Both the position numbers and the translations under genes were made by a program. The notes under the pieces were generated by a model. It was given only the letters and a program-made list of their open reading frames with translations, was not told the DNA's origin and did not search any database. From J061 sp003695725 [NCBI: Candidatus Schekmanbacteria bacterium] (GTDB lineage: Bacteria; Schekmanbacteria; GWA2-38-11), in assembly GCA_003695725.1 (NCBI GenBank), contig RFHX01000054.1, positions 1 to 5,126 on the forward strand: a DNA stretch of 5,126 bases, read 5' to 3'. This document shows, in pieces, positions 219-5,126 of this stretch. Position 1 is the stretch's first letter. Each line of letters starts with the position of its first letter.

Positions 219-872
219 ATGAAAAGAAAGTCTTCATTTTTTGTTGCTTTTGTCGTTTTCATCCTTTCAGCGGCGTTATGTCTCCCGGGGGCTTATGCAA
301 AGAAAAGCAAATATTTTGTAGTGGACAAATGTAAAATAAATAACAAAAATGTTACCCTTAACAAGCCCAAAAAAGGAGTGTCAAAGGCGGCAAAGATCTC
401 TCAGTCAGTATCTGCAACAAGACCTAAAATCAAACTTGAATTCGATAAACTTAAAAAAGGGAAATCAACTATCAAAATGACTCTCGAATTCACGCCAGTT
501 GATACGAATGATCAAAGACGCATCACAATGACTGCTGCTGTCATCGTAAAGACAGACAAGAAGGGCAAAAAGATTACACTTTCAAAGGTCAAAGGAAATG
601 AATTTAAATATACAGGTACCTTGTCAGACGGCTCACCTGCAAATGGCGGCACACTCGATGTAAATGGCAAGGATGCTCTAACAGCAAGAAAGAAAACCTG
701 TACATTGAATTCTGAAGTTCTTCTCAATGCCTTGACTGCAGAAGACAAGATTGGACAAATTGGTAAACAAGTTGGAGACTACACTTATAAACTTACTCTC
801 TCAGGGGCTAAGTTCAAACTTAAAAAGAGAAATCTCAAAAAGATTAAAGGAACACTTAGCGTAACAGAATAA
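219..872 (+). CDS. Lysine-rich exported protein of unknown function
   Basis: This 217-residue protein is not one I recognise. Residues 1-27 form a Sec signal peptide: basic MKRK, a hydrophobic stretch to about residue 22, then AYA with likely cleavage after Ala27. Cys21 is in the signal but lacks Gly/Ala/Ser before it, so it is not a convincing lipobox. The predicted mature part (about 190 residues) has 39 Lys and 5 Arg against 16 acidic residues, so it is strongly basic. It has two cysteines (38 and 161) that could form a disulfide. Alternating hydrophobic and polar residues, as in EFKYTGTL and YTYKLTLSG, suggest beta strands joined by lysine-rich turns. The start is fixed by the strong ribosome binding site, and a terminator 23 nt after the stop makes it a single-gene unit. 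Binding to an anionic partner such as a cell-surface polymer is only inference from charge. Confidence 0.85.
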   Translation: MKRKSSFFVAFVVFILSAALCLPGAYAKKSKYFVVDKCKINNKNVTLNKPKKGVSKAAKISQSVSATRPKIKLEFDKLKKGKSTIKMTLEFTPVDTNDQRRITMTAAVIVKTDKKGKKITLSKVKGNEFKYTGTLSDGSPANGGTLDVNGKDALTARKKTCTLNSEVLLNALTAEDKIGQIGKQVGDYTYKLTLSGAKFKLKKRNLKKIKGTLSVTE

Positions 873-1161: not shown

Positions 1162-1235
1162 GGCGGTGTAGCTCAGATGGTTAGAGCATGCGGCTCATAT
1201 CCGCAGTGTCCGGGGTTCGATTCCCTGCACCGCCA
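1162..1235 (+). tRNA. tRNA with CAU anticodon, probably elongator tRNA-Met
   Basis: The full cloverleaf folds. The acceptor stem has seven Watson-Crick pairs (GGCGGTG with CACCGCC), the D stem is GCTC/GAGC with a 9-nt loop, and the anticodon stem TGCGG/CCGCA encloses loop CTCATAT with anticodon CAT at 1196-1198. The variable loop is 5 nt and the T arm has loop TTCGATT with one G-T pair in the stem. The discriminator is A1235 and CCA is not encoded. The G1-C72 pair and the lack of three consecutive G-C pairs at the base of the anticodon stem rule against initiator tRNA. Two identities remain: elongator Met, or the minor tRNA-Ile whose C34 is converted to lysidine. The acceptor sequence GGCGGTG matches Bacillus elongator tRNA-Met as I recall it, and the C4-G69/C5-G68 pairs used by E. 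coli TilS are absent (G-C here), so Met is favoured. Its position just before tilS leaves the Ile option open. Confidence 0.95.
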
Positions 1236-2804: not shown

Positions 2805-4328
2805 ATGGAGCTTTTAAAATCAGGAATTCCCGGCCTTGATGAAATCTTTCAAGGAGGCATACCAAGAGAAAATTGTCTTCTTGCTGAAGGACCGGCAGGC
2901 TCAGGGAAAACGACTTTCGGACTTCAATTCATATATAATGGCGCTACCCGCTACAATGAGAATGGACTAATTATCACCTTGGAAGAAAAACCTGCAATGC
3001 TTTATCGCGATGCTTATAACTATGGCTGGAATCTAAAAAAACTGGAAAAGGAAAATAAGATAAAAATTATTCCTACTTCACCTCAAACTCTGATTGATAT
3101 GATTTCAAATCCTACAAGCCACATAAACAACATCTTTGAAGAAATGAATATCAAACGAATATTTATCGACTCCATAAGCCATTTCAGACAAATAGCCGAA
3201 AACAATCTTCATTACCGTGAACTAATCAACAAACTTATTTATGCTGTTTCAGACAAAAACGCATTTATTGTACTTTCAAGGGAATTGCCGGGTTATAGTG
3301 AAAACAATCTTTTCTCTGATGAAGTGTATCTCGTCGATACTGTCATACGGTTGACATATGAATCCTGTGGGAATAGGAGAAGAGAAAGGTTTATAGAAAT
3401 CCTCAAATCTCGGGGTCAGGATTATATTTCGGGAAAACACTCCTTTATCTTCGATACGACAGGAATTCATATTTTCCCTTCCTGCTTTCTGAAAAACTAC
3501 GATATAAATGATATTCCCTCCTCTGAAACTGCAAAATTGAGCACAGGAATTGAGGGGCTCGATGAAATGCTGGGTGGAGGACTCAGCGTTGGGAAAACAG
3601 CGCTCATAACAGGGTCAAGCGGGACAGGGAAAAAAACAATAGGAATACAATTTCTAAACGAAGGTTTTACTCATAATGAAAACGGGCTATTTGTTACACT
3701 GCACAACAGACCTGAGGACATCATTCATTCAGCACTATCTTATTCGATAAATCTTGACGTAGCACTTAAAAAGAGGATGCTTGAAATTCTTTATCGTTCG
3801 CCAATGGAACTGATTGCCGATGAACTTTCCCACTCGATCAGAAAAATCTGCTCAGAAATGAATATTAGAAGAGTTGTAATAGATTCACTCAATGACTTAA
3901 GCGATTCAATAAAAGATAAGGATTACTTTAAAAATTTTCTCTTTTCACTATGCGATTTCTTTTCAAACAAAGGAATTACCACCATATTGACTCTCGACCT
4001 CAATGAAATGTTCAGTGCATCTGAAAGTGAAAACAGTGAAATAATGGGGCTAATTCCAGCCGTAATTTCACTTCGTTATGTAGAACTCGAAAGTGAAATA
4101 AGAAGGGCTGTTTCAGTAATCAAAGTAGGCGGCTCATATCATGACCGTAGTATCCATGAATACATTATCTCAAATAAGGGAATGGAAGTTTTAGAAAAAT
4201 TCGAAGGTAGAGAAGGTTTGATGAGCGGTTCACCGAAAAAAATTGATATACAGCTTCAAGAAATCTTAGGGAATATGGCTCTTTATGAAAGAGCTGTTAA
4301 AAAAAATCGTGGTATCGACGACCATTAA
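2805..4328 (+). CDS. Two-domain KaiC-like (RecA/RAD55 family) ATPase with degenerate second domain
   Basis: This 507-residue protein has two tandem KaiC domains, close to cyanobacterial KaiC in length (519). Domain 1 (about 4-226) opens with SGIPGLDEIFQGG and has Walker A GPAGSGKT at 29-36, the catalytic pair E60-E61, Walker B IFIDS with D122, and K201/R203 matching the KaiC interface residues. Domain 2 (about 246-480) opens with STGIEGLDEMLGGG and keeps Walker B VVIDS with D360. Its Walker A reads GSSGTGKK (270-277), with Lys where Thr or Ser binds Mg, and the Glu pair is H300-N301. C-terminal segments SLRYVE, GGSYHD and SGSPKKI align with KaiC CII, but the clock phosphosites Ser431/Thr432 are Met414/Gly415. 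I infer ATP hydrolysis in domain 1 and a structural or nucleotide-sensing domain 2, probably in a hexamer. The start is the only good one: TAA at 2793-2795 closes the frame just upstream, and only a weak GGGG precedes the ATG. A sensor-like gene follows 150 nt downstream. A circadian role is unlikely, since no kaiA or kaiB is visible and the phosphosites are missing. Confidence 0.93.
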   Translation: MELLKSGIPGLDEIFQGGIPRENCLLAEGPAGSGKTTFGLQFIYNGATRYNENGLIITLEEKPAMLYRDAYNYGWNLKKLEKENKIKIIPTSPQTLIDMISNPTSHINNIFEEMNIKRIFIDSISHFRQIAENNLHYRELINKLIYAVSDKNAFIVLSRELPGYSENNLFSDEVYLVDTVIRLTYESCGNRRRERFIEILKSRGQDYISGKHSFIFDTTGIHIFPSCFLKNYDINDIPSSETAKLSTGIEGLDEMLGGGLSVGKTALITGSSGTGKKTIGIQFLNEGFTHNENGLFVTLHNRPEDIIHSALSYSINLDVALKKRMLEILYRSPMELIADELSHSIRKICSEMNIRRVVIDSLNDLSDSIKDKDYFKNFLFSLCDFFSNKGITTILTLDLNEMFSASESENSEIMGLIPAVISLRYVELESEIRRAVSVIKVGGSYHDRSIHEYIISNKGMEVLEKFEGREGLMSGSPKKIDIQLQEILGNMALYERAVKKNRGIDDH

Positions 4329-4478: not shown

Positions 4479-5126
4479 ATGGTTGATTCATTTGATGACT
4501 TCCTTCAAAAAATTGCTAATTCCACTGCAAAAATAGAGATAATAAATTACTTCCAAAACAATCCTTCAGCCATTGATTCACCGCAAGGCTTGAGTCGATG
4601 GATCAATATTGACCCTCTTGAAATTGAAAATGAATTGGAAGACTTAGTGGAAAGCGGTATTCTTCTAAAAGAAAATGCCGGCACTCATTCACTCTACCGT
4701 TATTCTCCGCGCAAAGAATTCTCTACTTTCATATCTAATCTCTTCAACGCGCGCTCATATTATGAAAAGAAGATAGCCGAACTTGAAAAGGAAAAAAACT
4801 CTATCTCAGACAGGTTTACAAAAGAGATAATCAGAGAGAAAGGGAAAACCAAAACTATAATAGAAAGTATGAATGAAGGAATACTTGTCCTAAATAATGA
4901 AGCTAAAATTTTGACTGTAAATTCATTGGCGAGGGATATTCTATCAATAAAAGAGAGTGATCCAACAGGAAAAGACTTTTTCTCCATCATATCATCAGAT
5001 AAAAGAAAAGATTTGATGAAGTTAATTTCAGAAAATGAGAATGGAACTTTTGAAATAAAGTTGGAGGAAAATAAAAAAGAATCTTTTTACAAGGTCAATA
5101 TATCAGAATTGAGAGATGACTCAGAC
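4479..5126 (+). CDS. Predicted winged-helix/PAS sensor protein, 3' end beyond the window
   Basis: The frame stays open from the ATG to the last base of the window (216 codons), so this is the N-terminal part of a longer protein. Residues about 5-78 look like a winged helix-turn-helix: a helix with AKIEIINYFQNNP, a recognition-type helix with PLEIENELEDLVESGIL, and a wing ending LYRYSP. Residues about 92-125 are charged and heptad-like (YYEKKIAELEKEKNSI), suggesting a coiled coil or signalling helix. From about 127 a PAS domain begins: IIESMNEGILVLNNEAKILTVNSLARDIL is interrupted by no stop and has the family's GxLVxN and VNxxA features. No membrane segment is visible, so it is probably cytoplasmic. 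The missing C-terminus could hold a histidine kinase, a cyclase, an AAA+ domain or only PAS repeats; the visible part does not decide this. It follows the KaiC-like gene in the same direction, and a joint signalling role is inferred from that. Confidence 0.82.
   Translation, partial: MVDSFDDFLQKIANSTAKIEIINYFQNNPSAIDSPQGLSRWINIDPLEIENELEDLVESGILLKENAGTHSLYRYSPRKEFSTFISNLFNARSYYEKKIAELEKEKNSISDRFTKEIIREKGKTKTIIESMNEGILVLNNEAKILTVNSLARDILSIKESDPTGKDFFSIISSDKRKDLMKLISENENGTFEIKLEENKKESFYKVNISELRDDSD

What the first reader, a model, noticed from the sequence alone, without database searches (positions are those of the whole stretch)
3535..4245. Second KaiC domain appears to be a pseudo-ATPase
Aligning the two halves of the protein without gaps shows Walker A GPAGSGKT in domain 1 against GSSGTGKK in domain 2 (Thr36 to Lys277), and the catalytic pair E60-E61 against H300-N301. 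Walker B Asp is kept in both (D122, D360). In cyanobacterial KaiC both domains hold active P-loops and Glu pairs. Losing the Mg-binding Thr and both glutamates in one domain, while the fold segments stay well conserved, suggests selection for a non-hydrolysing, possibly regulatory, domain. The Lys277 side chain could occupy the Mg site.
Basis: partly seen in the sequence, partly recalled or inferred. Interest (0 to 1): 0.6.

Follow-up and report, generated by a model that had tools for sequence, protein, structure and literature searches.

The report
KaiC relative with disarmed second half
This bacterial relative of the KaiC clock protein keeps one working-looking ATP-burning half, while the other half has lost the residues that hold magnesium and split ATP but keeps those that grip ATP, and two related genomes carry the same changes, so the second half is probably a non-burning regulatory part.

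Summary
ORF 2805-4328 (+, 507 aa) is a two-domain KaiC-like protein: domain 1 has GKTT, E60-E61, D122; domain 2 has GKKT, H300-N301, D360. Of 88 other KaiC-like proteins, 82 keep the domain-2 P-loop lysine; 82 of 82 have Thr/Ser277, Glu301, Arg442. The nearest relatives found, three proteins of another phylum, are canonical there, so the change is derived. Phosphate-gripping residues stay (P-loop glycines, K276, D360, K440); Mg/hydrolysis residues go (277, 301, and 442 in two of three). Domain 2 is otherwise about as conserved as domain 1. Correction: position 300 is variable in relatives, so its loss alone is ordinary. A PAS kinase gene follows (cut by the contig end in the window); no KaiB found. 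Best reading: an inactive, nucleotide-gripping CII beside an active CI ATPase. Inactivated KaiC domains are known: new variant. Nothing biochemical could be tested.

The parts
2805..4328 (+). two-domain KaiC-like gene (507 aa)
   Evidence: ORF; PF06745 E=2e-93 with two stretches; AlphaFold model mean pLDDT 88, the 50 PDB matches listed are all KaiC
2814..3479 (+). domain 1 (CI-like), canonical
   Evidence: GKTT, E60-E61, D122, K201/R203 kept in 3 of 3 lineage members
2889..2915 (+). domain 1 Walker A GPAGSGKTT (29-37)
2982..2987 (+). domain 1 glutamate pair E60-E61
3168..3170 (+). domain 1 Walker B D122
   Evidence: D in 88 of 88 other KaiC-like proteins
3534..4238 (+). domain 2 (CII-like), disarmed
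3612..3638 (+). domain 2 P-loop GSSGTGKKT (270-278); K277 (3633-3635) replaces the Mg-binding Thr/Ser
   Evidence: invariant in 3 of 3 orthologues; T/S in 82 of 82 others with the P-loop Lys
3702..3707 (+). H300-N301 in place of the glutamate pair (E318/E319 of S. elongatus KaiC)
   Evidence: E at 301 in 82 of 82; roles of E318 and E319 from PMC2777353 passages; numbering
3882..3884 (+). Walker B D360, kept
4044..4049 (+). M414-G415, in place of the phosphorylated S431-T432 of KaiC
   Evidence: alignment to a cyanobacterial KaiC; these sites also vary in other relatives
4122..4130 (+). K440 kept, G442 in place of the trans arginine (K457 and R459 of S. elongatus)
   Evidence: R in 82 of 82 others; G, G, R in window, G001, G002
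4479..5126 (+). downstream sensor histidine kinase gene, cut by the contig end: N-terminal conserved domain and PAS visible; HisKA and HATPase_c seen only in the full-length orthologues
   Evidence: PAS in window; HisKA + HATPase_c in P0003, P0004; same order in G001 and G002; alignment

Best explanation
The gene encodes a double-RecA-domain KaiC-like ATPase that most likely assembles as a double-ring hexamer (inferred from family). Domain 1 (CI-like) is an ordinary Mg-ATPase. Domain 2 (CII-like) became a pseudo-ATPase on the stem of this lineage: it kept the parts that grip phosphates (P-loop glycines, K276, D360, trans lysine K440) and lost the parts that hold Mg and drive hydrolysis or phosphotransfer (Thr to K277, the E319 equivalent to N301, trans Arg to G442 in two of three, no S431-T432 pair). 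Inferred mechanism: domain 2 holds a nucleotide without Mg, with the K277 ammonium taking the place of the metal between the phosphates and D360, or is locked in one state. It then serves as a fixed or ligand-sensing ring that sets the activity of domain 1 and presents the hexamer to the PAS histidine kinase encoded next door. Shown: the residues, their conservation, their derived origin, the predicted fold, the neighbour. Inferred: hexamer, nucleotide binding, lack of hydrolysis, the Lys-for-Mg swap, the link to the kinase.
For: K277, H300 and N301 identical in 3 of 3 lineage members with saturated synonymous sites (window vs G001 domain 2 pS 0.79, pN 0.21). Domain 2 is about as conserved as domain 1 (domain 2 vs domain 1 identity: window-G001 0.685 vs 0.667, window-G002 0.583 vs 0.611, G001-G002 0.621 vs 0.552; to the nearest other phylum 0.425-0.485 vs 0.358-0.482). 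In a scan of columns at least 93% conserved in the 82 others, 4 of 14 in domain 2 are changed (277, 301, 418, 442) against 1 of 18 in domain 1 (154); the kept ones include G270, G273, G275, K276, D360 and K440. G350, G389, G390 have T277, E301, R442, and the trio plus these three form one clade with SH-aLRT 99. E318 is the general base, E319 a Mg ligand, K294/K457/R459 stabilise the phosphates (PMC2777353, passages). In RAD51 paralogues the Walker A Thr and Walker B Asp hold Mg (PMC7614784, passages). Kinase gene downstream in 3 of 3 lineage members, in the window only its N-terminal and PAS part, and in G350 and G389 of the other phylum, not in G390.
Against: Only three sequences from one order carry the change. 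The domain-2 versus domain-1 excess of changed invariant columns is not significant as a count (Fisher p = 0.14); its weight rests on which residues changed. Against four more distant proteins, domain 2 of the trio is slightly less similar than that of the three nearest relatives (0.328 vs 0.342), while domain 1 is slightly more (0.406 vs 0.374). No ATP binding or hydrolysis was measured. R442 is still present in G002. Domain 2 keeps a P-loop and Walker B, so weak or unusual activity is possible.
Confidence: 0.72

Rival explanations
1. Domain 2 still hydrolyses or transfers phosphate by altered chemistry: H300 acts as the general base, K277 stands in for the metal and for the lost arginine as an internal lysine finger, and T278 or D360 hold a metal.
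For: H300 and K277 are identical in the trio along with D360, K276, K440, which is more than a mere scaffold needs. Position 300 varies widely among relatives that keep the rest of the site.
Against: Both metal-linked residues that are invariant in 82 of 82 others are gone, and no Ser/Thr sits at the S431/T432 positions in the window or G002 (G001 has Ser at the T432 position).
Confidence: 0.12
2. Simple decay: domain 2 is losing function under relaxed selection and is on its way to being a passive spacer.
For: Stepwise loss (R442 gone in two of three). Paenibacillus and a Bacillota MAG (6 proteins) show a domain 2 without any P-loop, as a separate clade.
Against: P-loop 9 of 9 residues and LHN identical in all three, domain 2 not clearly faster than domain 1. 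Decay would not be expected to keep K277 and N301 through saturated silent sites.
Confidence: 0.1
3. Domain 2 no longer binds nucleotide at all: K277 pairs with D360 and fills the empty site, and the domain is a pure structural or protein-binding ring.
For: A lysine there could pair with D360 (inference). Walker B Asp is kept with it.
Against: K276, the P-loop glycines and trans K440 are all kept, which fits phosphate binding better.
Confidence: 0.2

Closest known systems
KaiC (cyanobacterial clock ATPase/kinase, S. elongatus)
   Same: Two collinear RecA/KaiC domains; the 50 PDB fold matches listed (of 1976) are all KaiC; domain 1 keeps the equivalents of K52, E77/E78 and K224/R226
   Different: Domain 2 lacks the equivalents of T295 (number recalled), E318, E319 and, in two of three, R459; no S431/T432 pair; no KaiB match in 4 of 4 genomes of the phylum; scores under the KaiC equivalog cut-offs (249.5 vs 546.25 and 305.9 vs 408 bits)
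iKaiC: inactivated KaiC-like domains of archaea (Makarova, Galperin, Koonin 2017, cited in PMC5847659)
   Same: A KaiC domain judged divergent and possibly inactivated within signalling proteins (PMC5847659 passages)
   Different: Here bacterial, in a collinear double-domain KaiC, P-loop kept with a Lys swap; the 2017 paper itself was not held, so residue detail was not compared
ArlH/FlaH (archaellum KaiC-like protein)
   Same: KaiC-like protein that binds ATP, does not itself hydrolyse it, and acts on a partner (PMC8978795 passages)
   Different: Single domain (recalled); partner is the ArlI motor, not a histidine kinase; the ArlH model scores under its cut-off here (71.9 vs 215 bits)
Two-domain KaiC-like proteins of Paenibacillus and a Bacillota MAG
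   Same: Canonical-looking domain 1, disabled domain 2 (two PF06745 stretches at E <= 0.01 in 3 of the 6, the 3 scanned)
   Different: P-loop, Walker B and glutamate all lost; separate clade on the tree

Membership tests
KaiC superfamily (PF06745), double-domain form | two tandem KaiC/RecA domains | tested here: met
   PF06745 2e-93, two stretches; both domains over cut-off; model and fold search
KaiC superfamily (PF06745), double-domain form | domain 1 active-site set (Walker A GKT, Glu, Walker B Asp, trans Lys/Arg) | tested here: met
Circadian KaiC (equivalog) | over the NCBIfam cut-off for circadian KaiC | tested here: not met
   TIGR02655 249.5 of 546.25 bits; NF006799 305.9 of 408
Circadian KaiC (equivalog) | CII Walker A GKT, EE, R459, S431/T432 | tested here: not met
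   K277, H300-N301, G442, M414-G415
Circadian KaiC (equivalog) | KaiB partner in the genome | tested here: not met
   PF07689: 0 of 4 genomes of the phylum, while the control rings for S. elongatus; the genomes are drafts. KaiA was not searched
Inactive (pseudo-ATPase) KaiC domain | loss of catalytic and Mg-binding residues with the fold kept | tested here: met
   the fold is a prediction
Inactive (pseudo-ATPase) KaiC domain | no ATP hydrolysis | not testable with these tools
   needs biochemistry
Inactive (pseudo-ATPase) KaiC domain | conserved in relatives of the lineage, not strain-specific | tested here: met
   3 of 3 orthologues; in the fourth genome of the phylum (G003, 70% complete) none was found

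The most novel reading that the evidence does not exclude
Domain 2 is a metal-free nucleotide sensor: a lysine built into the P-loop replaces Mg so that the ring holds ATP or ADP permanently or reads the free-nucleotide state without spending it, and passes this, with the turnover of the active ring, to a dedicated PAS histidine kinase. It would be a KaiC turned from self-phosphorylating timer into a one-engine energy sensor.
Probability: 0.25. Interest if true: 0.6.

Novelty: new variant of a known kind. Interest (0 to 1): 0.42.

Why it matters
In cyanobacterial KaiC the slow CI ATPase and the CII kinase are entangled. A natural double-ring protein in which only CI keeps its catalytic set gives a clean test of what CI turnover alone can signal and what a non-burning CII ring is for. 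The lysine in the Mg position of a conserved P-loop is also a testable way of making a metal-free nucleotide site. The general idea of inactivated KaiC domains is already in print (PMC5847659 passages), so the interest is moderate.

Tried and rejected
Register shift in the P-loop (K277 as the true P-loop lysine, T278 as the Mg threonine): rejected, because K276 aligns without gap and the helix starts at K276 as at K35.

Sequencing error or strain-specific change: rejected by two other genomes with partly different synonymous codons.

Selection bias of the comparison set: the second genome-contig scan used patterns KTT[FI]G[LM]QF and TLEE[KR]P[KA]M, which could favour GKT. Dropping every protein whose domain 2 itself matches either pattern leaves 53 of the 82, of which 53 have T/S277, E301 and R442; the 15 that came through the genome search instead are 15 of 15.

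Rows dropped: of 95 ORFs hit in the first set, 11 under 400 aa and 5 duplicate rows were left out; the 80 loci are the best of 368 relatives reported. Trees are 'quick' (SH-aLRT only).

The first genome-contig scan with the single protein found nothing. A sample of 386 genomes gave 13 with a match at E <= 1e-60 and no further member with the change. The mBio 2017 paper on KaiC-like ATPases is not held. The literature searches covered the held open library only; 'KaiC' with 'pseudo-ATPase' gave 0 papers, which says nothing about papers outside it. Model coordinates were not in the Python box, so no distance K277-D360 was measured. No KaiA search was run. The kinase's N-terminal domain was not folded.

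Full report
WHAT IS THERE. The window is a whole 5126-base contig (G000:C54) of a draft genome from a phylum of which 4 genomes are held. The ORF 2805-4328 (+) encodes 507 aa with two KaiC domains (PF06745, 2e-93; both domains over the cut-off). It is below the cut-offs for circadian KaiC. An AlphaFold model from 24 sequences has mean pLDDT 88, with the ten-residue blocks over 261-310 at 95-97; the 50 PDB chains listed of 1976 matches are all KaiC.

Domain 1: GPAGSGKTT, E60-E61, D122, K201 and R203. Domain 2: GSSGTGKKT, H300-N301, D360, K440 and G442. Numbering against S. elongatus KaiC (with the alignment) puts K277 next to the K294 equivalent, at Thr295 (Thr number recalled), H300 at E318, N301 at E319 and G442 at R459. 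PMC2777353 (passages read) gives E318 as the general base, E319 as a Mg ligand, and K294, K457(n+1) and R459(n+1) as the residues that stabilise the phosphates. PMC5520375 (passages) reports Walker A, the glutamates, the R-finger and a truncated Walker B in all cyanobacterial KaiC subgroups.

Close homologues with GKT and EE would have refuted it. The two orthologues found in the phylum (G001, 67%; G002, 58%) both have GKKT and LHN. Codons differ silently at two of the three sites (K277 AAA/AAG/AAA, H300 CAC/CAT/CAC, N301 AAC in all), and synonymous differences over the two domains are saturated (pS 0.77-0.88), while pN is 0.20-0.27 in both domains. In the fourth genome, G003, 70% complete, no such gene was found.

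WIDER COMPARISON. I aligned 88 further KaiC-like proteins from many phyla with the trio; one of them is the paralogue in the window's own genome. 82 keep the domain-2 P-loop Lys, and 82 of these 82 have T/S at 277 (63 T, 19 S), E at 301 and R at 442. The other six, five Paenibacillus and one Bacillota MAG, have lost the P-loop and form their own clade (SH-aLRT 100). Position 300 is E in 30, D in 29, Q in 16, R in 3, Y in 3 and H in 1 of the 82: the first glutamate is not diagnostic. The controls for pattern bias are (53 of 53, and 15 of 15).

POLARITY. Three proteins of another phylum (G350, G389, G390) are the nearest relatives found outside the lineage (39%, 38% and 42% identical) and form one clade of six with the trio (SH-aLRT 99). 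All three have T277, E301 and R442, with R, Q and Q at 300. So the ancestor was most simply canonical at 277, 301 and 442, the change at 277 and 301 arose on the stem of the window's lineage, and R442 was lost in the family of the window and G001 (G002 keeps it).

SELECTIVE DISARMING. I scanned the columns of both domains that are at least 93% conserved in the 82. In domain 2, 4 of 14 are changed in at least one of the trio: 277, 301, 442 and 418 (Asp to Pro; the three nearest relatives have His, Asp, His). In domain 1, 1 of 18 is changed (154). As a bare count this is not significant (Fisher p = 0.14). What is telling is which ones: the residues that grip phosphate stay (G270, G273, G275, K276, D360, K440), and those that hold Mg or drive catalysis go. 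Otherwise domain 2 is about as conserved as domain 1: within the trio 0.685, 0.583, 0.621 for domain 2 against 0.667, 0.611, 0.552 for domain 1; to the nearest other phylum 0.425-0.485 against 0.358-0.482. Against four more distant proteins, domain 2 of the trio is slightly lower than that of the nearest relatives (0.328 vs 0.342), and domain 1 slightly higher (0.406 vs 0.374).

NEIGHBOURHOOD. Downstream on the same strand, 150 bases after the stop, is a gene (4479-5126, cut by the contig end) of which a PAS domain is visible. Its orthologues in G001 and G002, 26 and 1 bases after the kaiC-like stop, are PAS-HisKA-HATPase_c kinases. G350 and G389 also have a gene directly downstream with HisKA and HATPase_c (PAS found by Pfam in G389 only) and a similar N-terminal domain; in G390 the next gene is nadA-like. 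Kinases beside KaiC-like genes are common: 43 of 82 loci, 40 on the same strand, by a crude ORF-based test that includes G001 and G002. So the pairing is old and ordinary; what is new is the state of domain 2. No KaiB was found in 4 of 4 genomes. The genome has a second two-domain KaiC-like protein (G000:C162), with GKTT and EE in domain 2, also next to a PAS kinase.

HOW IT MOST LIKELY WORKS. Domain 1 burns ATP. Domain 2 holds nucleotide without Mg or is locked, and serves as a regulatory ring for domain 1 and for the kinase. Precedents: ArlH binds but does not hydrolyse ATP (PMC8978795, passages); RAD51D and XRCC2 keep ATP bound through purification in the BCDX2 complex, with Mg held by Walker A Thr and Walker B Asp (PMC7614784, passages); a name for possibly inactivated KaiC domains, iKaiC, exists for archaea (PMC5847659, passages).

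VERDICT. A real, conserved, lineage-specific loss of the Mg/catalytic residues of the CII domain, best read as a pseudo-ATPase: new variant of a known kind, moderate interest.

Noticed in passing
window 1162-1235 (+): A tRNA with anticodon CAT lies directly upstream of tilS (1268-2689), whose product modifies the CAU tRNA-Ile (role recalled). The same tRNA-tilS order is in G001 (L033 11496-11569); none was found in the G002 stretch. Whether it is Met (ARAGORN's label) or Ile2 was not decided.
   Followed up: partly
window 219-872 (+): A 217-aa protein with a signal-peptide-like start (by eye) and no Pfam or NCBIfam match; ORFs of 230 and 210 aa with a similar kind of start precede tilS in G001 and G002.
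   Followed up: no
L058, L075, L081, L085, L086, L113: Bacillota two-domain KaiC-like proteins in which domain 2 has lost P-loop, Walker B and glutamate together: a second, separate disabling of domain 2.
   Followed up: partly
L039 8929-11532 and L040 1383-3989: KaiC-like ORFs of 867-868 aa with a C-terminal extension; in L039 it matches solute-binding proteins (SBP_bac_8, SBP_bac_1), an odd fusion for a cytosolic ATPase (not checked further; L040's extension was not scanned).
   Followed up: no
window 4479-4754 (+): The kinase's first 90 or so residues have no Pfam match in the window but are conserved in the orthologues and resemble the N-termini of kinases beside KaiC-like genes in another phylum; a candidate KaiC-docking or DNA-binding part.
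   Followed up: partly
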